In this document: piece after piece, positions 6,777 through 29,884 of the stretch
Numbering within the stretch: position 1 is the first letter of the stretch
Layout of the letters: each line of letters begins with the position of its first letter
DNA from: a virus
DNA length: 29,884 nucleotides
Strand: one strand, 5' to 3'
IMG/VR virus record: IMGVR_UViG_3300035698_035425
Span: 1 to 29,884 of that record
Translations under genes and position numbers: made by a program
Notes under the pieces: generated by a model
The model's database searches: none
What the model saw: only the letters and a program-made list of their open reading frames with translations
What the model was told of the DNA's origin: nothing

Positions 6777-7112
6777 ATGTCTGCCAAAAAAGTAGATAAT
6801 GATAAGAACCCAAGAGGGCAAGATCGCCCTAAAGATGGATCTGGAGCTGGGCAAGGTAAGCCTGGTGGCCAACGTGGTGGGAAAAACACCGAAGATTGCC
6901 TTGATGGAGGGCCTGGTCATGGCCAAGGCGGTGGGCGAGGCAAAGGCACGGGGAGAAAAGATTCTAAGAAAAGAGCTAAAAAAGCTTTTGAATATATCCG
7001 TGAACTATTAAAAGCGTATCAAGAGAGTTCTGATGCCCTTCTTTTAGCCAGAATTTATGATCTTATGGATGATATTAAAAAAGGAATGGAGGCTGATGAT
7101 GAAAAAGAGTGA
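6777..7112 (+). CDS. Gly-rich disordered protein with C-terminal helix
   Basis: A 111-residue protein whose ATG follows the M15 stop with no gap. Residues about 8-60 are a low-complexity Gly/Lys/Arg/Gln-rich segment (GGPGHGQGGGRGKGTGRKDS and related), certainly disordered and strongly basic. Residues about 62-105 are an amphipathic helix (KKAFEYIRELLKAYQESSDA... and IYDLMDDIKKGM). No family is recognised. A basic disordered arm joined to a helix is compatible with DNA or RNA binding or with lining the capsid interior, but that is only suggestive. It overlaps the next gene by 14 bases. Confidence 0.6.
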   Translation: MSAKKVDNDKNPRGQDRPKDGSGAGQGKPGGQRGGKNTEDCLDGGPGHGQGGGRGKGTGRKDSKKRAKKAFEYIRELLKAYQESSDALLLARIYDLMDDIKKGMEADDEKE

Positions 7113-7875
7113 AGAAATTGGTGCCCCAGCGAATGCTCTGGGCAATCCTTCTTTTAAAGAAATGATTTTTAGAGAGTTTTACAGCCATTTGGCTATCGTG
7201 GAATCTCAGGTCGAGATTCATGGATCTATGTGGGATTATCCAGTGTCGAGTATTGCGATTGATGCTGACGGTAAAGAAACGAAAGACAAGGATTACGGCA
7301 AATACAAAGTAATGTTGACCATGTACGCCACGAAAGCCCATGAGGGGTTGGGGATGTGGGAAACCAACTATGAACCTCCGTTTGTTGCGCCCACAAGTGG
7401 CTATTATCAGGATGAATGGAGCAACATTGAGGGCAATGCTCCGCTACCTGCATCTGGATGCAATTGCCCGGTTTGCAGCGTCAAGGTGAAGAAAATTGAT
7501 CAGTGGGACGAGATTGATACTGCTATTGCAGCAGCCGCTATTGATTTTATGAAAAAGTGGTACGAGGATCCCAAAATTGAGAAGGAAGAATACAAGGCCA
7601 CGGTCTCCAGGAGAGGAGTGAAAAAATCTATGAATAAACTATTAACAATCGTGAATAAGATGAAGGACTCCGGTAAGACGAATGACGAGATTAAGGATGT
7701 CGTTCGTAAGGCGTATAGTAACGTCGGCGATGTGGAACTTTTTGGTAAGAGTGATTACGAATTGTTCCCCATGAGAGATAGCTTGGAAAAGCCGCTCGAC
7801 GATTTTTATGAGTCGAATGGCGTTTCTGTCACGACTGATATTTTGGATTTTTCTAATCTTTTGGAAAAAAGGTAG
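7099..7875 (+). CDS. Hypothetical protein with CxCxxC cluster
   Basis: A 258-residue protein. ATG 7099 is preferred over ATG 7096 and over an earlier in-frame start at 7057, because ggagg at 7088-7092 is spaced 6 bases from it; this overlaps the previous gene by 14 bases. The N-terminal half is mixed alpha/beta with conserved-looking aromatic stretches (FYSHLAIVESQVEIHG, YEPPFVAPTSGYYQDEW). Near residue 128 is a Cys cluster (GCNCPVC) that could bind zinc or iron, though only three cysteines are close together. The C-terminal half is helical (AIAAAAIDFMKKWYE, MNKLLTIVNKMKDSGKTNDE). No family is recognised. The location between head genes suggests a structural or assembly role. Confidence 0.55.
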   Translation: MKKSEEIGAPANALGNPSFKEMIFREFYSHLAIVESQVEIHGSMWDYPVSSIAIDADGKETKDKDYGKYKVMLTMYATKAHEGLGMWETNYEPPFVAPTSGYYQDEWSNIEGNAPLPASGCNCPVCSVKVKKIDQWDEIDTAIAAAAIDFMKKWYEDPKIEKEEYKATVSRRGVKKSMNKLLTIVNKMKDSGKTNDEIKDVVRKAYSNVGDVELFGKSDYELFPMRDSLEKPLDDFYESNGVSVTTDILDFSNLLEKR

Positions 7876-10915: not shown

Positions 10916-10933
10916 GATAGGAGATAATTATGG
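10916..10933 (+). promoter_or_regulatory. Translation initiation region, copy 2 of an 18-base repeat
   Basis: This is an exact copy of the initiation region of the beta-helix gene (3077-3094), here in front of the tail sheath gene at 10930. The AGGAG core is 6 bases from the ATG. Confidence 0.6.
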
Positions 10934-13416
10934 CTATTATAACACAGTTTCACGGTGCACAGATTACAAAGCCAGGGGGATATTCCTACATCGACGTAGA
11001 ATTAAATCCACAGCCTCTTTCTGCGGCTGGGATCGTCGGCGTTGTGGGTGAGGCTCTTGGTGGGGCACCGGGTTTGACTGATGGGGTTCAAACTTTTGCG
11101 AGCACCCAGCTTTATGACATTGTCCAGAAATATGTAAGTGGCCCGATTGTGGATGCTGCTCGCGCTCTTTTGGCTCCGAGTAAGGACCCAGATATTCAGA
11201 ACGGCGCGAATACGATAAAAGTTTATAAAACGAATGCATCGGCGTTCTCTTCTGGTTCCGCTGTTCAGATGGACGATGCTGCGGTTCCGTTAGCGATTTT
11301 GACTTTTGACTCGAACAATTATGGAATCGACGAGAACAATGTCAATTTTTACGAAACAGAAGGCACGACATCTGATGATCAAGCTTCAATGACAAGCGGG
11401 GTTATCGCCCTTCCTGTGACAATTGTTATTGGTGAAACACTTGTGTTTACCGTTGCTGGTGCAGCTTACACTTTCACGGTCCCCGCTGGTGGGGCTGGTC
11501 CTCATGCGACGGTAGTCCCAGTTCTAGCTATGTTGAATGATGCTGCAAATTGGGCACCATCAAAACCTGCTGTTGCCACGGCAGTTGGCACCACAAAAAT
11601 CAAACTTACGGTAGATACTTCTTTAGCGGCTTTTGATGGTTATGAGAGTATGCACGAATATGCCGAGACTTATCTCAGTGGTGATGGTCTTGAAGAAGAT
11701 CTTAATTTCAGGAAACCAGTTGCTTTTGCCACCAACGGAACAGTTGGCGGTACGTTTACTGTCGCGGCTCTTGCTAATTTAGCTGCGAATCAGTGGACTC
11801 AGATTGGCGCAACGGCTCTCGCGACTCTCAATGTTAAGATTACATCGATCACGGGAACGGGACCGTATACGATCACAGTGGATAATGGTCTCACGGACTT
11901 GAGTCTTTATACCACTGTTGCAGCATCGTATATTTTTGATGCCCAGACCGCAGTCAATTCTTTGACCTTAGAAGTGACAAAGGGAACTGCTGGTTGGTCC
12001 AGAGGGCAGCGTGGAAGCCGTATCTTCTTTATTAAGAAGAATACGACTCTTGAAACTATTTCTGAGAACGCAAATGTTCCTGTGTTCCGCATCATGTATA
12101 TCGGTGCTGGAACGGCTTGCACGATGAAGATCTTAGACTCTGGTGGAACTCGTAAGTTAACGACCACTGTTACTGGTGGCCCAGGTTCAGAAGCTCTCGA
12201 CATCACACTGTCTAATCATAATACCATCCAACAGTTAGTTGATTACATCAGTAATTTTAACGCTGGTGCTTCTTACACCTGTTACACGGATTATTATAAT
12301 GCTGGTACAGTGAGCCCGCAGGATCTTGATTTTTACAATGATATTGATATTCGTAACTTCCCGCTTGATGTGAAAACGGCTATTGCGGATATCCTGGCTA
12401 ATATTAATACTTATTCTAGCCTGATGGCAGCCACTCGTGTGTCGAATATTTATGGTCAACTTGCGTTGATTTCTTCGACGGCTCGTAGGTTTTTGAGTGG
12501 CGGTGTCAATGGGGCAACGACTAACAGTTTGGTGCAGACGGCATTTGATGCTCTGCTTTCAGTGGATTGCGATATCGTGGTCCCACTGTTTAGCCAGAAC
12601 GCTTCTGCCGATATTTTAGATGGGTTAACGGATTCCAGTTCTTCGTACACAATCAGTTCTGTCAACGCCATGGCGGATTCTCATTGCCGAATGGCTTCGA
12701 GTACATTGAATCGAAGAGAACGCACCGCGTTTGTGGCGTTGAAAGATACGTATGATGCTTCAAAGACAGCCGCACAATTAATGAATAGTGAGTTTGTCTC
12801 TATGGTTCTCCAGGATGTATATACTCTTGATGGAACCGGAGCGACTCTTTGGAAGAATCCCCATGTATTTGCGGCGATGTGTGCTGGCATGGAAGCTGGG
12901 GCTGAGATTGGTATGCCACTTACGAAAAAGGCGCTGAATTGTTACGGTGTCAGGCATTCAACTTTTGACCCGCAGACTCAATATGCTGATGCTATTACGA
13001 ACGGGTTGTTTTTCGCTGAACAAGGTGACCAGGGTGGCGTGACCATCGTTTGTGGCAACACAACCTATCAGAGAGACTCTAGTTTCGTTTGGAATCGTCG
13101 ATCTGTTATCCGGGCATCTTTCTACACTGCGAAGACGTTGCGTTCTCAGCTTGAGTCTACTTTCGTTGGAAAGTATCGTTCAGCTGGTGCTTCGTTGGCA
13201 TCTCAGATTAAATCGGTTTCTCAGTCCGTACTGTCTGCGCTTCTGACCGCCAATATCTTGGCACCAGACGCAAAGAACGGTGGTCTTGGCTATCGTGGTC
13301 TTAAGGTCACGATTACCGGAAGTATTGTCACCTTGTACGTGATTGTGACCCCAGTTGCTGGGATTGATTTCGTGTTAGCGAACATTACGCTGGCACCAAT
13401 AAATGATATTGCTTAA
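10930..13416 (+). CDS. Contractile tail sheath protein
   Basis: An 828-residue protein with a strong ribosome site. Residues 1-40 include AQITKPGGYSYIDVEL, the usual start of a sheath subunit. The C-terminal half contains VDCDIVVPLFSQNASADILDG, SSTLNRRERTAFVALKD and MCAGMEAGAEIGMPLTKKAL. It ends with a domain (residues about 730-828) in which FYTAKTLRSQLESTFVGKYR is followed by GYRGLKVTITGSIVTLYVIV, as in other sheath proteins. Residues about 157-340 are an extra beta-rich insertion that would sit on the outer surface. The subunit is larger than typical sheaths (roughly 400-700 residues) because of this insertion. The tube gene follows, as expected for a contractile tail. Confidence 0.9.
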   Translation: MAIITQFHGAQITKPGGYSYIDVELNPQPLSAAGIVGVVGEALGGAPGLTDGVQTFASTQLYDIVQKYVSGPIVDAARALLAPSKDPDIQNGANTIKVYKTNASAFSSGSAVQMDDAAVPLAILTFDSNNYGIDENNVNFYETEGTTSDDQASMTSGVIALPVTIVIGETLVFTVAGAAYTFTVPAGGAGPHATVVPVLAMLNDAANWAPSKPAVATAVGTTKIKLTVDTSLAAFDGYESMHEYAETYLSGDGLEEDLNFRKPVAFATNGTVGGTFTVAALANLAANQWTQIGATALATLNVKITSITGTGPYTITVDNGLTDLSLYTTVAASYIFDAQTAVNSLTLEVTKGTAGWSRGQRGSRIFFIKKNTTLETISENANVPVFRIMYIGAGTACTMKILDSGGTRKLTTTVTGGPGSEALDITLSNHNTIQQLVDYISNFNAGASYTCYTDYYNAGTVSPQDLDFYNDIDIRNFPLDVKTAIADILANINTYSSLMAATRVSNIYGQLALISSTARRFLSGGVNGATTNSLVQTAFDALLSVDCDIVVPLFSQNASADILDGLTDSSSSYTISSVNAMADSHCRMASSTLNRRERTAFVALKDTYDASKTAAQLMNSEFVSMVLQDVYTLDGTGATLWKNPHVFAAMCAGMEAGAEIGMPLTKKALNCYGVRHSTFDPQTQYADAITNGLFFAEQGDQGGVTIVCGNTTYQRDSSFVWNRRSVIRASFYTAKTLRSQLESTFVGKYRSAGASLASQIKSVSQSVLSALLTANILAPDAKNGGLGYRGLKVTITGSIVTLYVIVTPVAGIDFVLANITLAPINDIA

Positions 13417-17073: not shown

Positions 17074-18669
17074 ATGATAGGCGATATTCCTAACCAAAAG
17101 AACGATAAAAATACTTATGTGAGTTGCTCTTCCTTTTGCAAGGTGGTTGTTTTTCACTATAGCGAATATTCGGCAAACAATACTGACGATATAACAAAGA
17201 ATTTAGATTCAGAGACTCTTGTCATAGGTGGCAAAAACTCGAATGTTTTGACTAGCTTTAACTATTCAAAAAGCAACCACAGCCCGTCAGGAAAATTTAG
17301 TTTCACGTTGTTGCCTACAAAAAATTGGTCAAAGCATATAAGGCCTGGTGATTGGATATTATCTTATTTTGGAAATAAATCTGAATCTTTAGATATGGAC
17401 GAAACTTTAAGATGCGTCGGGATTGTTAATTCCATTGTTATGTCTGATGTAGTCTTGCCCGATGGACGTAGAGTTGTGCGGTACACGGTACACGGGGAAG
17501 ATTTTGGGAAAGTATTTGCTCGTTACGACATATGGGTGAACCCCTGGGCTCCAGATTCTTACCTTCCGTTACAATATAAGAAGATTTTTGCTGGTCAAAT
17601 CAGGGGCAACCCCGGTGAGATTGTGGACCAGCTTATAGATTTATTTTTAGGGAATAAAAGAAGTGTCTTTGGGGGAGGGACGGCAGCTAGAACTTTGGAT
17701 CAGTGGTATATTCCTAATTGGCTTAAATATGCGATTGAAACTGGTGACACAAATTTATCATTAAAAAATATTCAATTAGTGGCACCGTCTGAGTCTGCCA
17801 ATAAATTTGCAGACATACTGAGAAGAAATATTCAAAAGACCCCAGCCCTCTCTGGGTGGTGGATGATTCTTGATAACGATATTATGAATAGCATGTGGGA
17901 TGTGATGCTTAGGTACGTTAATCCACAAATTAATGAAATTTTTTGTGAGATTGACGATACTGGTGATTTTTATTCTCCAGCTTTATATGTCAGGACTATT
18001 CCTTTCTCTTTTAGAGGCTCCAACATTTCTTCGTCCGAAAGGTATTTCTTAGATCTACCTTCTGTTGAAATTCATGGAGATAGGATATTTAAGGCTTCTC
18101 TAGGGTTTAACGATAATGATCGTCCTACAATGATGATCATGATCTCTAACGCGCTGGACTCTTTTGGAAGTGCGGACTCTGAGCCCTCTATTTCTTATTT
18201 AACAGCTAATAAATACCCTAAATTATTGTGGGGTGCCAATAGAAGGTATGGCTTAGTTTTGAAAAAGTTCGAGACTGATTACGCTCTCGTTAAAGGCGGC
18301 CAAAACAGCGCGAAAATAGCTCCAAATTTATTGTTGGAGTACAATAAGTTACTTTATCATTGGTACGAGAACAATGCTTTGTTCGAGACAGGGCAGATTA
18401 CAATAGCTGGCGTTCCTGGTGTAAGGCTGGGGAAGAGATTGAATGTTATGAGTGGGCCTTTGTTGAAGGGGGTGGATCTCGGATCGCAGGGTGGGTATAG
18501 AAGCTACTATATAGAAGCGTATGATGAATATTGGGAGTTTGAGCGGCCATGGACACAAACATTATACCTTACAAGAGGTATTGCTGTCGTTAATGATAAA
18601 GAGTATTTTGTGAATGACAAGTATGATGATTCTCTATCCATTGGAATAAATGAGATAAACAAGGGGTAA
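17074..18669 (+). CDS. Baseplate hub protein (gp27/gpD-like)
   Basis: A 531-residue protein starting one base after the peptidase stop. The N-terminal half shows the beta-barrel hub pattern: GKFSFTLLPTKNWSKHIRPG followed by WILSYFG, then a repeat strand LRCVGIVNSIVMSDV and YTVHGEDFGKVFARYDIWVN. The middle contains an interface segment (GEIVDQLIDLFLGNKRSVFG). Another barrel follows (SMWDVMLRYVNPQINEIFCEI, ALYVRTIPFSFRGS). The C-terminal third has LLWGANRRYGLVLKKFE and GYRSYYIEAYDEYWEFERPW. Hub proteins of this type form the trimer at the end of the tube that holds the spike, and the next gene is the spike. Length is somewhat above T4 gp27 (about 390 residues). Confidence 0.75.
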   Translation: MIGDIPNQKNDKNTYVSCSSFCKVVVFHYSEYSANNTDDITKNLDSETLVIGGKNSNVLTSFNYSKSNHSPSGKFSFTLLPTKNWSKHIRPGDWILSYFGNKSESLDMDETLRCVGIVNSIVMSDVVLPDGRRVVRYTVHGEDFGKVFARYDIWVNPWAPDSYLPLQYKKIFAGQIRGNPGEIVDQLIDLFLGNKRSVFGGGTAARTLDQWYIPNWLKYAIETGDTNLSLKNIQLVAPSESANKFADILRRNIQKTPALSGWWMILDNDIMNSMWDVMLRYVNPQINEIFCEIDDTGDFYSPALYVRTIPFSFRGSNISSSERYFLDLPSVEIHGDRIFKASLGFNDNDRPTMMIMISNALDSFGSADSEPSISYLTANKYPKLLWGANRRYGLVLKKFETDYALVKGGQNSAKIAPNLLLEYNKLLYHWYENNALFETGQITIAGVPGVRLGKRLNVMSGPLLKGVDLGSQGGYRSYYIEAYDEYWEFERPWTQTLYLTRGIAVVNDKEYFVNDKYDDSLSIGINEINKG

Positions 18670-18670
18670 T

Positions 18671-19591
18671 ATGCCGCACGTATTTAAAGACGGGACAATT
18701 GGTAGTTCTAATTTTCGTTTGGTAAATAAAAAGGGTACTCTTACCAACAAGAATCAGGACTATAATATAATAAAAGCTCGAATAGACGAGATTCTATACG
18801 TTGATGATGAAATGAATCCGACTAAAGACACCAATAATCCACAGGTGATCTATAACTGCACTATTATTGGTGGATTTGATGCAGGCAAGAAAGTTACAAA
18901 TGTTGTCGATATGTCATATATGGGCGGCCCTTATTCTGGGAGTGAGAGAGTAAGAGAGCCGATGATCGAAAAAGACTTTAGTGGCCGTACCGAAAAAACC
19001 CCACCCAACACCCACGGAGAGATTGTTTTATTAGTTCGGCTTTATGGCGCTCCTGGTGGTTATGTAATAATCGGAGCATTAAAACATCCGAAATTTTCAA
19101 AGGCTGCCAAAAAAGCAGATGGACAGAGGTTGTACTGGGAATACAATGGTTTTACTTTTGAGATCAATAGGGATGGTGCATTAACTGCGACATTCGGCGG
19201 CGGCCCTAAAGATGCTGATGGGGAGCCCACAGACGAAGAAGCTGCTGGCTCTAAAATTGTTTTCTCAAAAAATGGTAGCATAGATTTGATTGATAAAGAA
19301 GGAAGTGGTATAAAAATCGATGCAGAGAATAAGAAAGTTGAGTTAATTGCTGGTACGGGGGGTATGGAGATAAGTTCTGGTGCAAACTGGAATATCCAGG
19401 TGAGTGGGAATGCGTCTATACAAGCTGATGGGAATGTCGAACTTAATGGTTCCATGGTTGCACTTGGTGGAGGTGGCGTTGGTGTGGCTAGAATTGGAAG
19501 TGTTGTTATGGGGACTGATGGGGAAGGTCGGCCAATAACCGCGTGGGTGGATACTGGCGGCAGTAGCTTGAAGGTTACGGCAGCAGGATAG
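18671..19591 (+). CDS. Baseplate spike protein (gpV/gp5-like, OB-fold plus beta-helix)
   Basis: A 306-residue protein with an OB-fold region at about 30-150 (IIKARIDEILYVDD, VIYNCTIIGGFDAGKKVTNV, HGEIVLLVRLYGAPGGYVII). A beta-prism/helix region follows at about 190-275, made of short repeats such as GSIDLIDKEGSGIKIDAENK, VELIAGTGGMEISSGANWNI and NVELNGSMVAL. This is the layout of contractile-tail spikes that pierce the outer membrane. The C-terminus (residues 275-306) lacks an obvious PAAR motif, so a separate tip protein may exist elsewhere. The stop lies 8 bases before the sugar nucleotidyltransferase gene. Confidence 0.8.
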   Translation: MPHVFKDGTIGSSNFRLVNKKGTLTNKNQDYNIIKARIDEILYVDDEMNPTKDTNNPQVIYNCTIIGGFDAGKKVTNVVDMSYMGGPYSGSERVREPMIEKDFSGRTEKTPPNTHGEIVLLVRLYGAPGGYVIIGALKHPKFSKAAKKADGQRLYWEYNGFTFEINRDGALTATFGGGPKDADGEPTDEEAAGSKIVFSKNGSIDLIDKEGSGIKIDAENKKVELIAGTGGMEISSGANWNIQVSGNASIQADGNVELNGSMVALGGGGVGVARIGSVVMGTDGEGRPITAWVDTGGSSLKVTAAG

Positions 19592-19599
19592 GAACGACT

Positions 19600-20517
19600 A
19601 TGAACACGAACATCTACGTTCTTATAATGGCTGGTGGATTTGGGACGAGGTTGCATCCTCTATCCAGTATCGAACGTCCAAAGCAATTTATTGAGTTTGT
19701 CGACGGGAAGAGTTTGATAAGACAAACATTTGAAAGAGCCCTAAAAATAACTGACAAAGAGAAAATCTTTGTTGCTACAAATTGGCAGCATACGGAAGCG
19801 GTGGCCTGTCATTTGCCAGAACTTCCTCCAGAGAACATTATATCGGAATCCTGCCCTAAAAACACAGCTCCAGCCATCGCTTTTGCGGCTTATCGCATCT
19901 TTGGGATGGACCCAAGTGCTACTATGATTTGCATGCCGAGCGATCATTTGATTACGGATGACGATAATTATGTGGATATATTAAAATACGCTTGTGAGTG
20001 TTTGCTGGAGCATGATTACCTGGTTACTCTTGGAATCAAACCGGAGTTTCCTTCAACTGAATTTGGATATATCAAAAGGCTTCCAAAACAGGTTAAGGCT
20101 CGGTTTTATGGGGTTGAGAGGTTTGTGGAGAAACCCAATCCCAAAAAAGCACGGAAATATTTTGATTCAGGGGAATACTACTGGAATAGCGGTACTTTTA
20201 TCTGGCGGGTTAAGACAATCATGGGTGCGTTTGTTGCGTATTGCCAATCGGTATCAGCGAATCTTTTGACGTTACCTATTCGTGATATTCAACCAGAGCA
20301 GTCTGATAAGTATTTCTATGATTGCGACAAGATTTCGATAGATTATGCAGTCATGGAACGGTCGGATAATATAGCAGTTGTTCCTGCTAATGTCAATTGG
20401 AGCGATGTCGGGAGTTGGGATGCCATTGGCAAACTTATGGTGAGGTCCGATATTCAGCTTTCAGAAGAAGTGAGATTTGCGTATCTTGAGAGGGTTAATA
20501 ATGGGACTTGTATTTGA
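19600..20517 (+). CDS. manC: Mannose-1-phosphate guanylyltransferase (GDP-mannose pyrophosphorylase core)
   Basis: A 305-residue enzyme that joins mannose-1-phosphate and GTP to give GDP-mannose and pyrophosphate. Its motifs are complete: GGFGTRLHPLS (12-22, R17), RPKQ (26-29, K28), ESCPKNTAPAIAF (83-95), PSDH (113-116, metal-binding D115), EFGYI (154-158), VERFVEKPN (172-180), WNSGTFIWR (195-203) and NVNWSDVGSWDA (264-275, second metal D269). It lacks the C-terminal beta-helix and isomerase parts of bifunctional ManC, and is shorter than typical stand-alone enzymes (about 340-360 residues). The ribosome site is agga just after the spike stop, and its own stop overlaps the next gene by 17 bases, so it is integrated into the operon. 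The product would feed glycosylation of virion or host surface; no partner enzymes are seen here. The function call is firm; the biological role is open. Confidence 0.9.
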   Translation: MNTNIYVLIMAGGFGTRLHPLSSIERPKQFIEFVDGKSLIRQTFERALKITDKEKIFVATNWQHTEAVACHLPELPPENIISESCPKNTAPAIAFAAYRIFGMDPSATMICMPSDHLITDDDNYVDILKYACECLLEHDYLVTLGIKPEFPSTEFGYIKRLPKQVKARFYGVERFVEKPNPKKARKYFDSGEYYWNSGTFIWRVKTIMGAFVAYCQSVSANLLTLPIRDIQPEQSDKYFYDCDKISIDYAVMERSDNIAVVPANVNWSDVGSWDAIGKLMVRSDIQLSEEVRFAYLERVNNGTCI

Positions 20518-22003
20518 CGCAGCGACCAGGAAGTCAGTGTCTAAGCAGATGATTGCTCTGCCTTTGCAGAACAATGCTATCGATTCAATGTTGGATAGCA
20601 TCAATGAAGAAAAGGCAGTGAACGACAATATTGATGGTGGGAACGATGTATTCTACGAAAATTATGCGGGACTTGTGTCGAATAACGAAATCGAGAGATC
20701 CCTTAAAGATGGAGTTCTTGCCGGAACCTTTGTTGAGGCCGATATTGAAAACGCAATAGATAGGGCGGATCCGAATCTTTTCTATCCTGTGGCCCCGGCA
20801 ACGCCAAACCCCGACTATGTGCCGTTTATCTGCCCAGAAGTGAATGGAGGCAATGCTACAACGGCGGCAAGCTACGAATACAATGCTGGGCCCCCGGCGA
20901 AAGGCGTTCTTCTCTGTAATGAAGCCACCAGTTCTCCGGCAGGCAATGGAATCGAAAATTTAAGCACTGTTATCCAAACTGGGTTTGCCCATGCGGGAGC
21001 GGCTACAACCCTTACCGGGAACTATTTGGTCGGCAATACAACAATAACGACTGTGGCAGCCCTCACCCTTGGGCAATATGTCTTGGTGGCAGGTTCAGGG
21101 CATTCTATGCTGTGTGTGGTGCTTTCTGTGGTGGGTGGGTTCACCTACAACATATATGTGGTTTGTGAGTCAACTGGAACGATTGTAGCGGGTGGTGCTG
21201 TTAGCCACTCCTGGACGGGCTTTACGGAGCCTGAGAGGACTTCATTGACGGCTACGGTCCCAACCTACCAGGATTTGATGGGCGCGTTGACCACAGTAGG
21301 CCTCAACAGTCTTGTGGAACGTGTGAACACCTGGGAAGTGGTAATAGCAGCTCAGAGAGTTCAGCTGGTTGCCAACGATGATCCCAATCACACTGTAGAG
21401 GTAACAGCAGAAATAGCTTCAATAGATGTTTTGAAAATAGCACTCGATAATTGGCTCGCTTTGGTAGGTGGAGCGAAATTTAGTAATGTTAATTTAGCAT
21501 CTCTTTCTTTGTTGAGTAGCAATAGGAGGGCGGCAAATCCTGCAAGAATCGCGGAAACGATTACAGCTTTAGGCGGTGTCACAAGGACAGGCGTAAACAC
21601 TTATGCTCCGACAGGAGTTGTGGATGACCTCTATTATCAGAGGTATGTGTATTTGGATGTAAGGATTAATATGGTGTTTGGGAGTCTCCGAAAATCGAGA
21701 AATGCGAATAAAGGGACGGCGAATCTTACCTATACTAAGGGTAACAATACTTTTCTTGAGAGCGAGTATGCGGGGGCTCTGGCGACATCAAAGATCTCGG
21801 CGAATGCTGATGGAAGTGTGAGGATCGCCCTAGAAGATGCTACTCAATTTTTAATCGCAGATAACGTCTACGTTTTGTCTGAATCTGTGGCTGAAATTGC
21901 AGCTACTATTCAAAATAAGTCTGGAAACGTGCTAACATTAAATGTCTCAATTCCCGGCACCATGACGGTCAGGGACTTGACAAGGGTGGTGAAAGAATTA
22001 TGA
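20501..22003 (+). CDS. Baseplate-associated structural protein, unknown family
   Basis: A 500-residue protein. ATG 20501 is chosen, preceded by agaggg at 20489-20494, and it overlaps the ManC stop by 17 bases; an earlier in-frame TTG at 20477 is rejected. The N-terminus (MGLVFDAATRKSVSKQMIAL) is helical. A region at about 100-250 is beta-rich with Thr/Gly/Val repeats (TTLTGNYLVGNTTITTVAAL, HSMLCVVLSVVGGFTYNIYV). A helical middle (QDLMGALTTVGLNSLVERVN, SIDVLKIALDNWLAL) is followed by a beta C-terminus (DGSVRIALEDATQFLIADNV). It is translationally coupled to the next baseplate gene (ATGA). No family recognised; a wedge or peripheral baseplate part is likely from position. Confidence 0.6.
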   Translation: MGLVFDAATRKSVSKQMIALPLQNNAIDSMLDSINEEKAVNDNIDGGNDVFYENYAGLVSNNEIERSLKDGVLAGTFVEADIENAIDRADPNLFYPVAPATPNPDYVPFICPEVNGGNATTAASYEYNAGPPAKGVLLCNEATSSPAGNGIENLSTVIQTGFAHAGAATTLTGNYLVGNTTITTVAALTLGQYVLVAGSGHSMLCVVLSVVGGFTYNIYVVCESTGTIVAGGAVSHSWTGFTEPERTSLTATVPTYQDLMGALTTVGLNSLVERVNTWEVVIAAQRVQLVANDDPNHTVEVTAEIASIDVLKIALDNWLALVGGAKFSNVNLASLSLLSSNRRAANPARIAETITALGGVTRTGVNTYAPTGVVDDLYYQRYVYLDVRINMVFGSLRKSRNANKGTANLTYTKGNNTFLESEYAGALATSKISANADGSVRIALEDATQFLIADNVYVLSESVAEIAATIQNKSGNVLTLNVSIPGTMTVRDLTRVVKEL

Positions 22004-23883
22004 GTGTAGCTCAAAGCATAGCAGAAGGTGGGCAGCTAGTCCTTGGTGATGGTCAAAGAATTTTTACTTCTTTTGGTAAAAATTATGGCTATCCCTACAA
22101 GGTGGTGATCCACTCTCTTCAAAAAGTAAGGGAAAAATACTGGAGATTTGATCTTGGTTATGCATTTGATGTCGAGAATGGGATGTCCGGTAGTGGTTTT
22201 AATCTTTCTAATTTTTATGATCCAACTAAAACCTTTTCTCAGTTCAAGCTTCAGATAAACCCCCAGGCCCTACAGCAGTCAGAGGATTTTTCTATTAATG
22301 TCACTCCATGTCAAACTGGGGTGGTTGTGGAGCATCAAGGTTTTGTGACAAAACAGCTGACAATTGCTGGGACCACAGGATTGAACCCTGTTCCGGGTGG
22401 GCGCAGTGGATATGCTGAAATGCTTCATCTTAGGAACTATTTTAGATCCTATGCGGAGCTGAAAAAAGACCCCACTAATAAAGATATGCGGTTAATCTTT
22501 CGTAATAAGAAAGATAATGAGCATTGGTATGTGGAGCCAGTTGGCCCAGGTGTAGTCACAAGAAGGAAAGCCGGGAAACCATTTTTATACGATTATTCGA
22601 TCCATCTTCTCATTGTTGGGAAGGCTTCTCCATATAAGAGGGTTTTTGGGGCGTTCAATGATGTTTTAGATTCTATTGATGAGTGGGAAGGCTACATTGA
22701 CGATGCGATTCAGAAAATACAAGATGCAGCGAGTTTAATCCGGTCTGTGTCTGATGTTGGTAAAAATATTTGGAATGATTTTACCTTAGTTGTGCTGCAG
22801 CCGATGGATAATGTTGTCAAAGTCTTGGAGTCGATGAAGTATGCGAAGTCGACATATTCTGCTTTGCCAAAGAAATTTTATGACGATCTTAAGTCCAGGG
22901 CGAAAGAGGTAAGGGATTCTAGCTATGATTTGGTCGGTAAGGGTTCCACAAGCTATAACAACCTAACTGGCAGGACAGCCATGCAGCCCCTAGACGTTCC
23001 ATCAGACAAATATTATACGATGGCTGAGGGTGCGAACAAACTTGTTATTGGCCTCGACAAGGTTCTTTCGTCGAATATGGCCTTTAGTGCGGAGACAGGT
23101 GTTGGTGGTTCTGTTGGTGCCTCATCTGACCTTGATACGGCCATCGAACTAAACAGCTCTGAGATTCAGATGGGAAGGTCTAACTCTTATCAATCGATAT
23201 CAAATTATTTTAATGGTGGTGTGAATTACATCCCACCGTCTTCGGTGCGGACAGCAGTTATTGAATATAATGACACACTTGAGAAGCTTGCGTTCAGAGA
23301 GATAGGGAATCCGGTTTTATGGTATCAGATTGTCCTTTTGAACAATCTTGACCCACCTTATTTTTCCGAGGCTCCTTTGCCTGGGAAAAGAACATTAAAA
23401 TATGGAGACACTATTCTCATCCCTGTTTATAGCAGTCAGGCGAAAAGACAGCAAACTACTAAGAATACGACTGAAAAGATCACTGAAGGTATGACGATTT
23501 ATGAGAGAAATCTCGGTGTTGACCTGCTATTGACGAACGATAATGATGTAGCGTGTGACACGTATGCGTCTGACTTGAGACTTGTCTCCGGGATGCCCAA
23601 TTTAGGGCAGGCAGTAAAAATCAATATTGGGCTTGAAAAAGGATCGTTACTTTATCACCCTGAAAAGGGTATAAATGCCCATGTCGGTGATAAAAATTCT
23701 GCGTCGGCGCAGGATATTTTGGAAAGCATAGAAGAATCTTTGTCTATAGATCCAAGAATTCAATCTGTTGAGGACATATCGGTGGTTAGAGATCAAAGCA
23801 TTTTAAGGCTGGACCTACATGTTACCCCAGCAAAGCTTGACCAGCCTATCCCATTACAGGTTGAACTTGAGGGGGGCACATAA
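22000..23883 (+). CDS. Baseplate wedge protein: gp53/LysM-like plus gp25-like fusion
   Basis: A 627-residue protein with three parts. Residues 1-240 form a beta domain with conserved-looking segments (FSQFKLQINPQALQQSEDFS, GRSGYAEMLHLRNYFRSY, KPFLYDYSIHLLIVGKAS), resembling phage proteins that carry a LysM domain and bind the hub. A helical linker follows at 240-400. Residues about 410-472 match a LysM/gp53-type domain (VIEYNDTLEKLAFREIG, VLWYQIVLLNNLD, LKYGDTILIPVYS). Residues about 490-627 look like gp25 (GVDLLLTNDNDVACDTY, a helix SAQDILESIEESLSIDPRIQ close to the conserved EPRI loop, and SILRLDLHVTP). In T4, gp53 and gp25 are separate wedge subunits; here they appear as one chain. The last base overlaps the next gene. 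Confidence 0.7.
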   Translation: MSVAQSIAEGGQLVLGDGQRIFTSFGKNYGYPYKVVIHSLQKVREKYWRFDLGYAFDVENGMSGSGFNLSNFYDPTKTFSQFKLQINPQALQQSEDFSINVTPCQTGVVVEHQGFVTKQLTIAGTTGLNPVPGGRSGYAEMLHLRNYFRSYAELKKDPTNKDMRLIFRNKKDNEHWYVEPVGPGVVTRRKAGKPFLYDYSIHLLIVGKASPYKRVFGAFNDVLDSIDEWEGYIDDAIQKIQDAASLIRSVSDVGKNIWNDFTLVVLQPMDNVVKVLESMKYAKSTYSALPKKFYDDLKSRAKEVRDSSYDLVGKGSTSYNNLTGRTAMQPLDVPSDKYYTMAEGANKLVIGLDKVLSSNMAFSAETGVGGSVGASSDLDTAIELNSSEIQMGRSNSYQSISNYFNGGVNYIPPSSVRTAVIEYNDTLEKLAFREIGNPVLWYQIVLLNNLDPPYFSEAPLPGKRTLKYGDTILIPVYSSQAKRQQTTKNTTEKITEGMTIYERNLGVDLLLTNDNDVACDTYASDLRLVSGMPNLGQAVKINIGLEKGSLLYHPEKGINAHVGDKNSASAQDILESIEESLSIDPRIQSVEDISVVRDQSILRLDLHVTPAKLDQPIPLQVELEGGT

Positions 23884-26800
23884 TGGCTATATTTACTCTT
23901 AAATCGTTTGCACAGATTGTTACCGATATGGTTTCTACTGTGACGGCGAATTCACCGATTACCGATATCAATGCGGGATCAGTGATATTAACACTTCTTG
24001 AGGCTTCGGCATCTGAAGACGCGAACTCTTATATCCAGATGTTGAATATTATTAGAGCATATAGTCTCGATACCACTTCAGGGACAGAGCTTGATGATAG
24101 GGCGTATGAGTATGGACTTATTCGTTATCAGCCCAAAATTGCTTCAGGTTCTGTAGATTTTTATGACACTGCTTTTACAAGAGTACAAACGACCATTTAT
24201 GCTGGGTTGCCTGGACCGAGTGCAGGAAATACTGCAATAAATATTTATGACTCAACTGATCTTCCTGCTTTAGGAGACATCGTTAATGTTGGCCGTGGTA
24301 CCATTAATGCGGAAGTTGTCCCATATGGCACTATTACAAATATGGGCGCTTATTATCGTTTGAACCTTACTGCTCCGTTAACAAAAGACCATGGTGTGAA
24401 TGAGACTGTGATCTTATCACAGGGCGGGATCCGTGTAATTCCGGCGGGCACGACGGTATACGTTCCAGAGTCTGATCTTTCCAATCAAATCAATTTTGTT
24501 CTTCAATCTGATGCCGTAATACTTGATGGTGAAACTCAGGTCACAGATAATATTGCTGTGTGTGCTGAAGCGGGATCAATCGGTAATGTAAAGACGGGCG
24601 CGATAAGGTATTTTGGATCTCTTCCGTTCCCAACTGCCGTCGTGAATAACCCCATGTCTTTCACCAATGGCGGCGACTTAGAGAGTGACGCTGAATTAAG
24701 GGATAGGATCAGGGATACTGTTCAGAGTTTGTCCAGAGGAACTGTTTTGGCTATTCTTACGGCAATGAACCAGATTAGTTCTGCTGTGCAGAACAATAGG
24801 GTTGTCTCCACATCTTTTGTTGAAGCAACAGCTTTAAATGAGCTTAACTTCTTATATATAGATGATGGTTTGGGGCTCGAACCGTGGTTTGATAATGTCC
24901 CGACAGAGATGCTGATGGAATACGCTCTTGGTGGGGAGAAATTCCTTCAGATAAGCAACGACCAAACGCCCGTCACAAAGGCCTCTATGGTTACAGCTGC
25001 CGGAGAGCCATACGGCCTTTCTGGTGGAGAAACATTAACGGTAAAGGTCCAAACTCAGTCTCAATCGATGGCTTTTGATGCAGCTAAGATTTCCATCCCA
25101 GGGATGGCTACTGCAGAAGAAGTTGTGAGATGCATTAATGATGATCCTAATGTTGGCGCGATTGTCGAAGCCAGGACAACTGAGAATAGAACCAAGGTTG
25201 TTATTGAGCCTGTGGTGAATTCAGCTGAGAGGATTGAGGTTATTTCCGGTACTTCGTTGCCCGCACTTCAGTTTACGGCTGGCGTTGAATTCAGGACATT
25301 AAACCTTTATAAAAATGATGTTATTCTGAACAAAGACGGTGAAAACGCATTTCTTCAGAACATCGGCCCTGAACCAGCTGCTGGTGGATACGTTGGTTTA
25401 GCCGGAACTGATTTTAACATCCAAGTTGATGGTGCTGCGACTATTCAGAATGTTGCCCTTACCACAGAAACTACGGCAGATGATGTTGCTAATTCGATAA
25501 ATGCTCAGATTTCCGGTGCTAGTGCTGTTGTGATTCAGGATGTCCCCACCATTGGGGGCGACACTGGACGGCGTATATTGATTACCTCGACCAACCCAGA
25601 GCCCGGTGACTCGGCTTTATTGGTTACGGCAGGTGCTCCAGATGCCAACGCTATTCTCCAATTCCCGGTAACGGTAAGCACTGGGGCGGCCAGAGATTAT
25701 ATTTTTAATAGGTATAACGGACAAATTGAGTTTGTGGTGCCGTTGACTGCAGGTGATGAAATTTTAGCTGGGACACCAAACACAAGGGCTTATCTGGAAT
25801 CTACTTCTGCGAGTCCGAATATCGTTACTGGTGGCCAAGAGCTTATTTTCCAGGTGGATGATATAGTCGATAGTGCCGTGACAACTCAAGTTGGTGCATC
25901 TGATTTTATAGACATAAATTTGATCCCACCTATTGGTGTGTTTGATGTTGATGATCACTTTATTCGCAGATGGGTGCGTTTTAAGAGCACCACCACAACT
26001 GTGGCCTTACAGGGAGTACGTAGAGAAATATCTGTATATGACGGTACTATAGGACAGTTTACAGTCGCTGTGGCTTTCCCTGCTGTCCCTGCTGTTGGTG
26101 ACGTTTATGAGATCGTCCAGGTCCTAACCATTCCTGGCGGTGTTCCGGTCGCTTACACGCCAACTAGCGCACAAGATGTTTTGGCTCCTTTGGTTGAAGG
26201 TGTTAGCTTTTATGGAAAAACGAAGAACCTCAACACGTATATGAGGATTCAGACGAATACCTTTGGAAGTGACGGTAAAATTAGGATCCATTCGGCTTCA
26301 ACTGCCGTGAACTTTACGTTCCCGACAGATGTGACGAAGTCTTCGGGCGAGTCGAATACTGGATATGTTGAGAGTGCGAATGAATCTCCGTTCACCTTTG
26401 GGGTTGGGCAATCGATTACTTTTGTGGCTGATAAAGATGTCTCGGATAAAACGGTTAGTATGACCATGCAGGTTCCTGGGACTGTGACCACACAGGTGAG
26501 CAATGTCGCTTTCAACGCGAGTGCTTTGACAGTGGGATACGTCACGGACGATTTTTTCACAGACATGGTCTGTCGGTTTAGGGATACAACACCAACGGTT
26601 GCTCTGAGATCTGAAGAGAGAACCATAGATACGTATGACCATCTTACTGGCCAAGTGCATGTGACTCTTGCGTATTCTGCGATTCCAGCTGTGAATGATT
26701 TGTTTGATATCGTGCCCAGAACTGCGGTGAACGTCAGGGATCTATTTGAAAACCCGGCATTTACGAATCTTTCTACATATTGCAAAACAGATCTTTCCAG

Positions 26801-27575
26801 TGACGGAACAAAAATACAGATTAGCACCTTGACGGCTGGAGGAGATGGGGCCGTGCAGTGCGCGGGCGGCACAGCGAATAGTTTTGCATACCTGCTTCCA
26901 ACTGACGCCACAGTATTAGGGCAGTTTGAGATGGATTCTGATTCTGGGTTGAGCATCGGTATGAGGATAAAGATCTTTAAGACAGGCGGCCCTGCTCCTG
27001 ATACCTATGATTTGCTTATTTCCGATATAGTAGCGAACCCGTTGCCGCATCCGTATCTTATCACGGTTACGACTTTGGCTGGGGCTTTGATCGATCTCAG
27101 TGAATTTACTTCTGCCAGGACTTCTTATATAACTGAATTTAATCAGTTTGATTTCTCTCTTATCATTGGAGAGGGACGAGATGCGTATAAATATTATATT
27201 GGGCTGGTTCAAGAAGCTCAGTGGAAATTAGATGGTAAGGATACTGACACCCAGAATTATCCCGGTGTTAAGGCTGCGGGCGTAATGATTGAAGTTAAGG
27301 CCCCTGTGATTGAATATATTAGCCATGTGAATGTGGATATAACCTCAAAAGAAGGTTACAATGTTATTAGCTTAAAGAATAATGTTATTTCTGCGATAAG
27401 TTCTTACATCAACACTCTTGGTGTCGGTGAGGATGTCATTTTAAGTGAGATCATCAATAGAGTCATGGATGTTGGTGGAATTCTTGATGCGGTTATCGTG
27501 TATCCACTATCGAATGTTATTATAGCTGCCAATGAGAAGGCCAAGATACTCGAAAGCAGCATATTGGTGGGATAA
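23883..27575 (+). CDS. Baseplate J-like protein (gp6/gpJ), giant with internal repeats
   Basis: A 1230-residue protein. Residues 1-80 (ITDINAGSVILTLLEASASE and TTSGTELDDRAYEYGLIRY) and about 180-330 are the classical Baseplate_J core, including RVIPAGTTVYVPES and GGDLESDAELRDRIRDTVQS (about 263-282). The C-terminus (about 1120-1230, with HVNVDITSKEGYNV, GEDVILSEIINRVMDVGG) is the matching end of the family. In between are about 750 extra residues: two flagellin-hook-like modules (about 380-465 and 502-596), then two copies of a 190-residue module (637-826 and 827-1013). In T4 the equivalent gp6 (660 residues) forms the iris of the baseplate; the extra modules probably radiate outward. Start overlaps the previous stop by one base. 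Confidence 0.85.
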   Translation: MAIFTLKSFAQIVTDMVSTVTANSPITDINAGSVILTLLEASASEDANSYIQMLNIIRAYSLDTTSGTELDDRAYEYGLIRYQPKIASGSVDFYDTAFTRVQTTIYAGLPGPSAGNTAINIYDSTDLPALGDIVNVGRGTINAEVVPYGTITNMGAYYRLNLTAPLTKDHGVNETVILSQGGIRVIPAGTTVYVPESDLSNQINFVLQSDAVILDGETQVTDNIAVCAEAGSIGNVKTGAIRYFGSLPFPTAVVNNPMSFTNGGDLESDAELRDRIRDTVQSLSRGTVLAILTAMNQISSAVQNNRVVSTSFVEATALNELNFLYIDDGLGLEPWFDNVPTEMLMEYALGGEKFLQISNDQTPVTKASMVTAAGEPYGLSGGETLTVKVQTQSQSMAFDAAKISIPGMATAEEVVRCINDDPNVGAIVEARTTENRTKVVIEPVVNSAERIEVISGTSLPALQFTAGVEFRTLNLYKNDVILNKDGENAFLQNIGPEPAAGGYVGLAGTDFNIQVDGAATIQNVALTTETTADDVANSINAQISGASAVVIQDVPTIGGDTGRRILITSTNPEPGDSALLVTAGAPDANAILQFPVTVSTGAARDYIFNRYNGQIEFVVPLTAGDEILAGTPNTRAYLESTSASPNIVTGGQELIFQVDDIVDSAVTTQVGASDFIDINLIPPIGVFDVDDHFIRRWVRFKSTTTTVALQGVRREISVYDGTIGQFTVAVAFPAVPAVGDVYEIVQVLTIPGGVPVAYTPTSAQDVLAPLVEGVSFYGKTKNLNTYMRIQTNTFGSDGKIRIHSASTAVNFTFPTDVTKSSGESNTGYVESANESPFTFGVGQSITFVADKDVSDKTVSMTMQVPGTVTTQVSNVAFNASALTVGYVTDDFFTDMVCRFRDTTPTVALRSEERTIDTYDHLTGQVHVTLAYSAIPAVNDLFDIVPRTAVNVRDLFENPAFTNLSTYCKTDLSSDGTKIQISTLTAGGDGAVQCAGGTANSFAYLLPTDATVLGQFEMDSDSGLSIGMRIKIFKTGGPAPDTYDLLISDIVANPLPHPYLITVTTLAGALIDLSEFTSARTSYITEFNQFDFSLIIGEGRDAYKYYIGLVQEAQWKLDGKDTDTQNYPGVKAAGVMIEVKAPVIEYISHVNVDITSKEGYNVISLKNNVISAISSYINTLGVGEDVILSEIINRVMDVGGILDAVIVYPLSNVIIAANEKAKILESSILVG
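25791..26360 (+). repeat. First copy of ~190-residue tandem module in the J-like protein
   Basis: Residues about 637-826. It begins AYLESTSASP, runs through QELIFQVDDIVDS, then VRFKSTTTTVALQGVRREIS and FPAVPAVGDVYEIV. After a loop come SFYGKTKNLNTYMRI, SDGKIRIHSAS and FPTDVTKSSG. The second copy begins directly at 26361. Similarity is visible only at protein level, so the duplication is old. Confidence 0.7.
26361..26924 (+). repeat. Second copy of ~190-residue tandem module in the J-like protein
   Basis: Residues about 827-1014. It begins GYVESANESP, runs through QSITFVADKDVSD, then CRFRDTTPTVALRSEERTID and YSAIPAVNDLFDIV. After a loop come LSTYCKTDLSS, SDGTKIQISTLT, GGTANSFAYL and PTDATVLGQ. 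Element order is identical to the first copy. Confidence 0.7.
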
Positions 27576-27578
27576 AAT

Positions 27579-29141
27579 ATGGATAGAATAGAACGATTGT
27601 ATCAATTTATGCCGAGCATGTATAGGCCAGGGCACAACGCCATGCTTACGGCGATCCTGGGTGCCTTTGCGGTTGGTGATGAAGGTGTGTCTTCCCAGCT
27701 TTATAACGCTAAAGACCAGATCTTTGTAAAAAGAGCTTCTGGAACATTTTTGGATTATTTAGCTGCTAATTATAAAGTTACGAGACCATCAGAGATTCCA
27801 TTTGTTGACGACCTGTTCCGCCAACTTATTCCTGTTTTAACATGGTGGCCGAAACAGGTTAAGCCCTCTATCTATAAGGCTCTCGAATTATTTTGGCCTT
27901 ATGACTATTCTCATTCAACTTCTGTCTCGGTAAACGCTGGAACGTATAATTTTGTTGGTGGCGAAACATTGGAATTGATGGTGGATAGAAAGCACCCCCT
28001 TGCTGTCGTTTTTACTGCCGATAGCATTACCGCTGGAGCTGCTACCGCCCAAGAAATTTGCACCAGAATTAATGCATGGTTTCCAGAATATGTTTATGCT
28101 CACCCAAGTGCCGATCAGAATACTGGGCTTGTTACTGTCAAGATTAGTACCCTGACCTTTGGTGTTGCCGGATCCGTTCAGATCACTGGCGGCACGGCAA
28201 ATGGTACTCTTACGACAGGAGCCGTTGTTGGTGCCGATCCGATGGACTTGGCTGTTTTGGAACAAGCGGTTAGCCTAGCGAGCGCCAAGGTTACGTATGC
28301 TGGCACTGGTGTGTTGTCTCTTACTGATGTAACAGGCACCTTTGATCTTGTGAATGTTGTGACAGGGACAAATCCTGATGGAACGACATTTACTTTCACC
28401 CCGACCGCCACGAACCCAGGGCTTGGATTCAGCTCTTATTTGTTCCAATACCCAAGAATCTCAATACACGAGGAGTTCCCGACCGAATTGGTCGTGAGGA
28501 TCCCAAAGAAGTTTATCTTGAACTGGGATACCAGATATTGGTCTCACAGATTTCATCCAGGTAATCCTCCTTGGGATGTTGATATTCTCAACGGCAGAAA
28601 CCCAATCACTGGTGTTTTCGAGCCGAATGAAAATCCTCCTTCTGGCACAAATTCTGGCCCGTATTGGCCTGGTCATTTCTTTTTCGATTGGGCAGTTGGG
28701 GGAACCGGGAGCATAACTCTTAGAAATTTGAAAACAACTTTAGTTACACCCATGGCTACAGACGGTAATACGGTTATCGAACTCGCAACCGATGTGTCTC
28801 AGTTCCCTGTGAACGGATACGTAGTGTTTGATTTCGGGAATACCCGCCAGGAGATTTGTAGATACGTGAGTAGGCCAGATAATCTTCATCTTATGCTGGA
28901 CCCACTGTACAAGCAGTCAACTCCTGATGCATTGGGTTTTTACCACCAGTTTAACCATGTGCACCCGCCTACAGAGAATGTGAATTTATGTGAAGTATCA
29001 CCTGTAAAGCCAAGAGTAACTGGTGAAGATTACCCAATATTCTTTATCGACACTGAAATTGCTTATGACATCGTCAGCGTTTTCGTCCTTCTGTTGAAGG
29101 CTGCTGGAGTGGTTGTAAGATGGATATTAGATGACGAATAA
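27579..29141 (+). CDS. Baseplate protein, gpI/tail protein I-like
   Basis: A 520-residue protein following the J-like gene, the classical J-I order. The N-terminal 75 residues show the tail protein I pattern (RLYQFMPSMYRPG, KDQIFVKRASGTFLDYLAAN, YKVTRPSEIPFVDDLFR). Residues about 116-211 are a flagellin-hook-like module similar to those in the J-like protein (GGETLELMVDRKHPL, ATAQEICTRINAW, GSVQITGGTANG). Residues about 290-400 include the strand HEEFPTELVVRIPKKFILNW and a Trp/Pro/Asn-rich loop (NPPWDVDILNG). The C-terminus is a beta domain ending with a hydrophobic segment (YDIVSVFVLLLKAAGVVVRW). It would link wedge and fibres. The inserted modules make it over twice the length of P2 gpI (about 176 residues). 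Confidence 0.7.
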   Translation: MDRIERLYQFMPSMYRPGHNAMLTAILGAFAVGDEGVSSQLYNAKDQIFVKRASGTFLDYLAANYKVTRPSEIPFVDDLFRQLIPVLTWWPKQVKPSIYKALELFWPYDYSHSTSVSVNAGTYNFVGGETLELMVDRKHPLAVVFTADSITAGAATAQEICTRINAWFPEYVYAHPSADQNTGLVTVKISTLTFGVAGSVQITGGTANGTLTTGAVVGADPMDLAVLEQAVSLASAKVTYAGTGVLSLTDVTGTFDLVNVVTGTNPDGTTFTFTPTATNPGLGFSSYLFQYPRISIHEEFPTELVVRIPKKFILNWDTRYWSHRFHPGNPPWDVDILNGRNPITGVFEPNENPPSGTNSGPYWPGHFFFDWAVGGTGSITLRNLKTTLVTPMATDGNTVIELATDVSQFPVNGYVVFDFGNTRQEICRYVSRPDNLHLMLDPLYKQSTPDALGFYHQFNHVHPPTENVNLCEVSPVKPRVTGEDYPIFFIDTEIAYDIVSVFVLLLKAAGVVVRWILDDE

Positions 29142-29212
29142 TGTTGGAAAAAGGTGTAAACAATGGTTTCAAATTATGTTAAAAGATATATGATGATTAA
29201 GAGGGAGAGTAT

Positions 29213-29884
29213 ATGGCACATCAAATAAAACTGAAAATGTGGGCGCAGGAAAGATACGATCTTCCTGACTTTAATTCGATACAAACGTACATATCTCAGG
29301 ATTTCGAGCGTTTGCATCGTGGCCTTATCACTGGTGATGAGACATATATCGCCAAGGGTTTTGCTGTAGCTCATGCATCTCCTAGTTTAGATTTTAATAT
29401 TATTGTAGATGGCTCCGTGATTTTTCAAGGTGCTAATGATGGTGCGATGTATATTGGCGAATCAGGCGCGACTGCTATTCCTTGTTCAGCTGTAAGTAAT
29501 ACGACCACCTATTTTTGGCTTGAAATGACAAATCAGGACACGACTTTAGCCGCGAGAACATTCTGGGATCCAGCTATGTATGATGGTCTTGGTGGTGAGT
29601 TCGAGCAGGATGTCCTCACTAGAAATGAGCTTATTTTAGAGATGAACAGCAGCACCATGGGTTTCCCTGTTGGTGCCAACATCATCCCTATTTGCACTAC
29701 TTTGGCGAACGCATTACCCCCTCCTGCCGCAGACATCACATCTTTTACGGATTGCAGATCAATGCTTTGGCGTTTGGGTAGTGGTGGATCAGTTCCCGAT
29801 GTAGACTATGTCTATCCGTGGGCTGCAGGCCGCACAGAGCCAGGAGTTAGTGGTGCAGCTGCGATATTCGCCAGTGGTGATAAG
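29213..29884 (+). CDS. Tail fibre or baseplate collar protein, 5' part (truncated by window end)
   Basis: An open frame of 224 codons without a stop, running off the window. ATG 29213 is preceded by gggagag at 29203-29209. Residues about 15-60 contain DLPDFNSIQTYISQDFERL, then GLITGDETYIAKGFAVAHAS and a beta strand LDFNIIVDGSVIFQG. This resembles the conserved head of phage tail-fibre-type or collar proteins, in which a helix is followed by 'KGF/VDG' strands. Residues about 110-200 are beta-rich and end with YVYPWAAGRTEPG. The family is not certain, and the full length and C-terminal receptor-binding part are not visible. Confidence 0.6.
   Translation, partial: MAHQIKLKMWAQERYDLPDFNSIQTYISQDFERLHRGLITGDETYIAKGFAVAHASPSLDFNIIVDGSVIFQGANDGAMYIGESGATAIPCSAVSNTTTYFWLEMTNQDTTLAARTFWDPAMYDGLGGEFEQDVLTRNELILEMNSSTMGFPVGANIIPICTTLANALPPPAADITSFTDCRSMLWRLGSGGSVPDVDYVYPWAAGRTEPGVSGAAAIFASGDK

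What the first reader, a model, noticed from the sequence alone, without database searches (positions are those of the whole stretch)
19600..20517. Complete GDP-mannose pyrophosphorylase core embedded in the tail operon between spike and wedge
The reading frame has all motifs I know for mannose-1-phosphate guanylyltransferases (GTR, PKQ, NTAPA, PSDH, WNSG, WSDVGSW), so it looks active. It starts 8 bases after the spike stop and overlaps the next baseplate gene by 17 bases, so it is expressed with late tail genes. Known phage sugar-nucleotide genes usually sit in early or auxiliary clusters. A role in making GDP-mannose for glycosylating virion proteins, or altering host surface sugars late in infection, would be new. 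The missing C-terminal domain may mean a minimal enzyme.
Basis: partly seen in the sequence, partly recalled or inferred. Interest (0 to 1): 0.75.

Follow-up and report, generated by a model that had tools for sequence, protein, structure and literature searches.

The report
Phage GDP-mannose enzyme among tail genes
A phage carries an apparently intact gene for an enzyme that makes the activated sugar GDP-mannose, squeezed between two tail genes; relatives carry the same enzyme elsewhere in the genome or a cluster of sugar-decorating genes beside their structural genes (one complete genome has both), so it is probably part of a phage glycan toolkit rather than a stray gene.

Summary
Confirmed: window 19600-20517 is an intact 305-codon ORF with every conserved GDP-mannose pyrophosphorylase (GMP) residue, 8 nt after the spike stop and overlapping the next tail gene by 17 nt. 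Its AlphaFold model (pLDDT 95.5) best matches T. maritima GMP (TM 0.86). Codon usage is that of its neighbours. The window is a 29.9-kb fragment of an uncultured myovirus. Nine distinct relatives show the same tail junction; none has manC there. It is not a one-off: a complete 109-kb relative (G004) has a GMP-only gene plus a separate isomerase-type cupin gene in its auxiliary region, another record (G005) has the two fused, and the three phage GMPs form one clade (99/90; holds when either relative is dropped). G004, G002 and G001 carry a glycosyltransferase cluster right after their tail-fibre genes; three 113-121-kb relatives lack both cluster and GMP. Best reading: a phage-lineage GMP moved into the tail operon to supply GDP-mannose late for phage-encoded glycan building, on virion or host surface. 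Activity, late expression, target and the window's own glycosyltransferases are not shown. Sugar-nucleotide genes in phages are known; the placement and the split/fused/relocated domain history are the new part.

The parts
19600..20517 (+). manC-like gene: GDP-mannose pyrophosphorylase catalytic domain only (305 aa)
19590..19593 (+). AGGA Shine-Dalgarno-like site for manC, overlapping the spike stop codon
   Evidence: sequence
18671..19591 (+). spike-like baseplate gene (weak DUF2345 hit), conserved in the clade at this place
20489..20494 (+). AGAGGG Shine-Dalgarno-like site for the next gene, inside manC
   Evidence: sequence
20501..22003 (+). conserved clade-specific structural gene of unknown fold; its start overlaps the manC end by 17 nt
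   Evidence: no Pfam/PHROGs hit; AlphaFold uninformative
22000..23883 (+). tail tube initiator / sheath-initiator-like fusion protein (used to find relatives)
   Evidence: PF23980 2.9e-18, phrog_975 5.3e-30
23883..27575 (+). baseplate J-like wedge protein
   Evidence: PF04865 4.5e-16, phrog_6 6.6e-39

Best explanation
The gene encodes a GDP-mannose pyrophosphorylase reduced to its catalytic domain (GTP + mannose-1-phosphate -> GDP-mannose + PPi). It belongs to a GMP lineage carried by this group of uncultured myoviruses. Relatives keep it in an auxiliary gene region, near or fused to a mannose-isomerase-type cupin; in the window's phage it sits in the spike-to-initiator junction of the tail operon, where its reading frame is interlocked with tail genes, so it is probably made late. 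It most likely supplies GDP-mannose for phage-encoded glycosyltransferases that decorate the virion or the cell surface; relatives carry such a cluster directly after their tail-fibre genes. Shown: intact catalytic residues, predicted fold, phage clade, variable junction, cluster in relatives. Inferred: activity, late expression, presence of the cluster in this phage, the glycan's target.
For: Family and fold; AlphaFold pLDDT 95.5, pTM 0.93; Foldseek top hits are the T. maritima, T. thermophilus and H. pylori GMP-family structures (TMq 0.86, 0.82, 0.70), ahead of ADP-glucose and UDP-glucose enzymes. All invariant residues of 47 homologues are kept: GxGxR, PKQ, E83, T89, D115, EKP, WN, D248, D269. 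Catalysis without a C-terminal domain is possible: truncated Arabidopsis VTC1 keeps about a third of its activity (PMC9168903). Phage lineage: clade of window + G004 + G005, 99/90, holds with either relative left out (97 and 98). Codon usage and GC3 typical of neighbours. G004 is complete (127-bp end overlap) with GMP, cupin and a GalE-like epimerase and an 11.5-kb cluster of GTs, pyruvyl transferase, methyltransferases, sulfotransferase and APS kinase just before its capsid genes; the cluster is also in G002 and its first gene in G001. G007-G011 lack GMP, PF04230 and PF00534 alike.
Against: No activity, expression or glycan data. The window holds no glycosyltransferase, cupin, phosphomannomutase or GDP-mannose-using enzyme that I recognised; it ends before the place where relatives keep the cluster. 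The phage GMPs share only about 38-40% identity, no more than with Bacteroidota enzymes, and are long branches, so common phage descent is likely, not certain. GMP and GT cluster occur together in only one complete genome. The direction of the move (auxiliary to tail) is inferred, not shown.
Confidence: 0.5

Rival explanations
1. It works on the host: GDP-mannose (or a derived sugar) is pushed into host surface polysaccharide during infection, for example to block adsorption of progeny or rival phages, with host glycosyltransferases as users; no virion glycan is made.
For: Phage GDP-mannose and LPS-type genes with this proposed role are reported in cyanophage S-SCSM1 (PMC9602691) and groundwater phages (PMC10980836, PMC12911398); pyruvyl transferase and sulfotransferase in the relatives' cluster are polysaccharide-type activities.
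Against: The relatives' cluster sits between tail-fibre and capsid genes and brings its own GTs, which fits a structural target as well or better. A surface change made only once tail assembly starts would have little time to act in a lytic cycle (inference).
Confidence: 0.27
2. The activated sugar is used for DNA hypermodification.
For: G004 encodes an ADDT-family (amino acid:DNA transferase) protein with a radical-SAM protein close by; phage DNA glycosylation is an established use of phage GTs (cited in PMC12619734).
Against: No gene recognised in the window points to DNA modification; the relatives' cluster carries pyruvyl transferase, sulfotransferase and APS kinase, which are polysaccharide-type; the manC copy here sits in the tail operon, away from replication genes.
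Confidence: 0.07
3. A neutral passenger gene in a variable junction, with no role in phage growth.
For: The junction holds different genes in different relatives: nothing in L008/L009 and L129, an 88-aa ORF in L002/L003, other ORFs in L124, L126, L130; endonuclease-like ORFs interrupt structural gene blocks in relatives.
Against: All catalytic residues kept despite about 60% divergence; phage-like codon usage; phage GMP clade; tight fit with Shine-Dalgarno-like sites on both sides.
Confidence: 0.08
4. The enzyme makes another nucleotide sugar (for example a GDP-heptose or other NDP-hexose) rather than GDP-mannose.
For: Substrate specificity within NTP transferases cannot be read with certainty from sequence; the TIGR01479 equivalog cut-off is not reached (228 versus 372.95 bits).
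Against: The match covers only the N-terminal part of the profile (positions 2-279 of 467), so the missing C-terminal half can account for the shortfall; [quoted passage not shown]
Confidence: 0.07
5. Assembly chimera: a bacterial manC was joined into the phage contig by mistake.
For: Metagenomic contig; the named 'phage' hits to manC that I opened in GenBank are unverified records.
Against: Overlapping reading frames on the 3' side and a Shine-Dalgarno-like overlap on the 5' side, no frame damage in either neighbour, phage-like codon usage, closest tree partners are phage genes.
Confidence: 0.01

Closest known systems
Type II GDP-mannose pyrophosphorylase (ManC; T. maritima GMP 2x5s/2x65, TIGR01479 N-terminal domain)
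   Same: Predicted catalytic fold (TM 0.86), all invariant active-site residues, about 36% identity
   Different: Ends about 25 residues after the catalytic core; no left-handed beta-helix and no isomerase domain; phage-encoded in a tail operon
GMP and cupin genes of the relatives G004 (split) and G005 (fused, 388 aa)
   Same: Same phage GMP clade (99/90); same catalytic residues; G004 is syntenic with the window over the capsid and tail block
   Different: Located in the auxiliary region, after a DUF932-like gene; accompanied by or fused to a mannose-isomerase-type cupin. The G005 record shows no window homologue other than GMP, so its kinship rests on G004-like genes
Phage auxiliary nucleotide-sugar genes (cyanophage S-SCSM1 mannose-6-phosphate isomerase, gmd, fcl; groundwater phages)
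   Same: Phage genes for the GDP-mannose pathway, proposed surface-glycan role
   Different: The passages read name the isomerase and downstream enzymes; here it is the pyrophosphorylase itself, inside tail genes
Mycobacteriophage virion glycosylation (Freeman et al. 2023, as cited in PMC12619734)
   Same: Phages with glycans on capsid and tail proteins and phage GTs as the likely makers
   Different: No glycan shown here; the relatives' cluster also has pyruvyl transferase and sulfation genes

Membership tests
GDP-mannose pyrophosphorylase catalytic domain | NTP_transferase (PF00483) domain over the curated cut-off | tested here: met
   128 bits versus cut-off 21.2
GDP-mannose pyrophosphorylase catalytic domain | GxGxR, K of PKQ, metal aspartates, EKP and WN residues conserved | tested here: met
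   All identical to the invariant columns of 47 homologues; residue roles by analogy with VTC1/TmGMP as described in PMC9168903 and general knowledge
GDP-mannose pyrophosphorylase catalytic domain | Fold closest to GMP rather than to other nucleotidyltransferases | tested here: met
   2x65 TMq 0.86; ADP-glucose and UDP-glucose enzymes about 0.54-0.63
GDP-mannose pyrophosphorylase catalytic domain | Enzyme activity with GTP and mannose-1-phosphate | not testable with these tools
   needs purified protein
Bifunctional GMP/PMI (TIGR01479 equivalog) | Full-length score over 372.95 bits | tested here: not met
   228 bits, profile positions 2-279 of 467 only
Bifunctional GMP/PMI (TIGR01479 equivalog) | C-terminal cupin isomerase domain | tested here: not met
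   Absent from the protein; tblastn with the G004 cupin and the G005 fusion finds none elsewhere in the window
Phage glycan-modification cluster | Phage-encoded glycosyltransferases | tested here: inconclusive
   Present in G004 and G002, first gene in G001; the window ends before that position
Virion glycosylation system | Glycan on virion proteins | not testable with these tools
   needs virions and mass spectrometry

The most novel reading that the evidence does not exclude
This myovirus group encodes its own route to a mannose-containing, possibly pyruvylated and sulfated glycan coat for its virions, with the sugar-activating enzyme in this member built into the tail operon so that donor supply is tied to tail assembly.
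Probability: 0.22. Interest if true: 0.75.

Novelty: new variant of a known kind. Interest (0 to 1): 0.45.

Why it matters
It ties a sugar-activation gene to structural genes and to a phage lineage whose members carry glycosyl-, pyruvyl- and sulfo-transfer genes beside the capsid and tail genes. If virion glycosylation is confirmed, it would extend it from mycobacteriophages to an uncultured myovirus group and give a concrete donor pathway to test. It also shows GMP and cupin domains as separate, fused and relocated genes in related phages.

Tried and rejected
Close relatives of the window protein in viral contigs by single-sequence patterns: none. Spike-adjacent protein 17074-18669 as a query: none. 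Named phages with manC in GenBank: five hits; the four opened are all unverified records and the fifth was not opened, so none is used as phage evidence. AlphaFold of the gene after manC failed (pLDDT 32). The promoter and terminator scan around manC is near shuffled expectation (21 versus 15.6 +/- 3.8; 5 versus 5.0), so no own promoter can be claimed. End-repeat check of G007-G009 found none, so their lack of GMP is not from proven complete genomes. A recent bacterial acquisition was rejected on codon usage and the tree. Papers on phage GMP genes as such: none found by the searches used; absence from this library is not proof. Freeman et al. 2023 is not held and was not read.

Full report
What is there. 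The window is a 29,884-bp virus record without end repeats. It carries the capsid and contractile-tail genes of a myovirus: major capsid 1154-2689 (phrog_752), sheath 10930-13416 (phrog_279), tube/sheath initiator 22000-23883, baseplate J 23883-27575. ORF 19600-20517 is intact and encodes a 305-aa NTP transferase of the mannose-1-phosphate guanylyltransferase type (TIGR01479 2.1e-67 over the N-terminal domain only; PF00483 6.1e-37; T. maritima GMP 3.1e-55). The gap to the spike stop is 8 nt and the overlap with the next gene is 17 nt; both starts have Shine-Dalgarno-like sites, AGGA at 19590-19593 and AGAGGG at 20489-20494.

Is it a working enzyme? The AlphaFold model is confident (pLDDT 95.5, pTM 0.93). 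Foldseek ranks T. maritima GMP with mannose-1-phosphate first (TMq 0.86, 36% identity), then T. thermophilus and H. pylori GMP-family proteins; ADP-glucose and UDP-glucose enzymes score about 0.54-0.63. Every column invariant among 47 homologues is kept. In plant VTC1 removal of the C-terminal domain leaves about one third of activity (PMC9168903), so a catalytic-domain-only enzyme is plausible. Activity itself is not shown.

Where do relatives have it? Using the tube initiator, the spike and baseplate J as queries I found relatives G001-G004, whose conserved capsid, sheath, initiator and baseplate-J proteins are mostly 45-66% identical to the window's, and six more distant ones (L124, L125, L126, L128, L129, L130). 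G003 and G004 are near-identical in the tail region and count once, so nine distinct junctions are visible. None has manC: G003/G004 have nothing in between, G001/G002 an 88-aa ORF (no Pfam hit for the G001 copy), the others nothing or different ORFs. So the spike-manC-next-gene order is so far unique to the window, in a junction that is variable.

It is not a one-off gene, though. G004 is complete (exact 127-bp end overlap). Across its contig ends lie a mannose-isomerase-type cupin gene (107906-108355), then, after short ORFs, a GMP-only gene (552-1487), and further on a GalE-like epimerase (4934-5863). G005 has GMP and cupin fused in 388 aa, likewise downstream of a DUF932-like gene, a name I gave by eye; G005 has no other window homologue, and its kinship with G004 rests on shared genes such as the minor head protein. 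A maximum-likelihood tree of 91 GMP domains puts window, G004 and G005 together (99/90). The tool warned of long branches; leaving out G004 or G005 keeps the window with the other (97 and 98). Identity between the phage copies is only 38-40%, as low as to Bacteroidota enzymes, so descent from one phage acquisition is likely rather than proven. Codon usage of manC is ordinary for the window (GC3 0.408, log-likelihood per codon -1.082, within the range of the other genes).

What could use GDP-mannose? In G004 an 11.5-kb block after tail-fibre-like genes and before the capsid genes (22702-34265) encodes GT1-type and GT2/GT7-type glycosyltransferases, a polysaccharide pyruvyl transferase, methyltransferases, a sulfotransferase and an APS kinase. 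G002 has a similar block after its tail genes, and G001 ends in the homologue of its first GT gene. The 113-121-kb records G007-G009, and G010-G011, have neither TIGR01479, PF04230 nor PF00534 matches; G007-G009 have no end repeats, so absence is not final. The window ends before the place where the block would lie, so its presence in this phage is unknown. G004 also has an ADDT-family DNA-modification protein, which keeps a DNA target open.

Mechanism, with steps marked. Shown: intact GMP domain, its place, its phage relatives, the variable junction, the glycan cluster in relatives. Inferred: co-transcription and late expression with tail genes (no separate promoter above chance); GDP-mannose as product; use by phage GTs; target virion protein or host surface. 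I hold the whole chain at 0.5.

Comparison with the known. [quoted passage not shown]). Glycans on capsid and tail proteins are reported for mycobacteriophages (Freeman et al. 2023, as cited in PMC12619734; not read directly). What differs here is the pyrophosphorylase itself, reduced to its catalytic domain and placed inside the tail operon, with split and fused forms in related genomes. I rate it a new variant of a known kind.

Noticed in passing
L020 1-1516 (G005 27075-29373): The minor head protein gene appears interrupted by a naturally split intein: an N-terminal half carrying an endonuclease-like domain ends in a stop, and an overlapping separate ORF supplies the C-terminal half ('GVVTHN' before 'CPHCRKF'); the flanking sequence matches the uninterrupted G004 protein.
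   Followed up: partly
L109 10702-17927 and L110 946-4265 (G004 22702-34265): Phage cluster of glycosyltransferases, polysaccharide pyruvyl transferase, methyltransferases, sulfotransferase and APS kinase between tail-fibre-like and capsid genes.
   Followed up: yes
L018 13083-16433 (G004 73082-76432): Radical-SAM protein, FkbM-type methyltransferase and an ADDT-family (amino acid:DNA transferase) protein in a row, suggesting DNA hypermodification in this phage.
   Followed up: partly
window 3091-4290: A 399-aa ORF inserted among head genes, weakly like a G004 fibre-region protein (31% over 150 aa) and not at this place in G004 or G002; no Pfam hit.
   Followed up: no
L002 13421-14302; G002 6219-7820: Zinc-finger/endonuclease-like ORFs (by eye) inserted between structural genes of relatives; weak DUF7487 hit for the first.
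   Followed up: no
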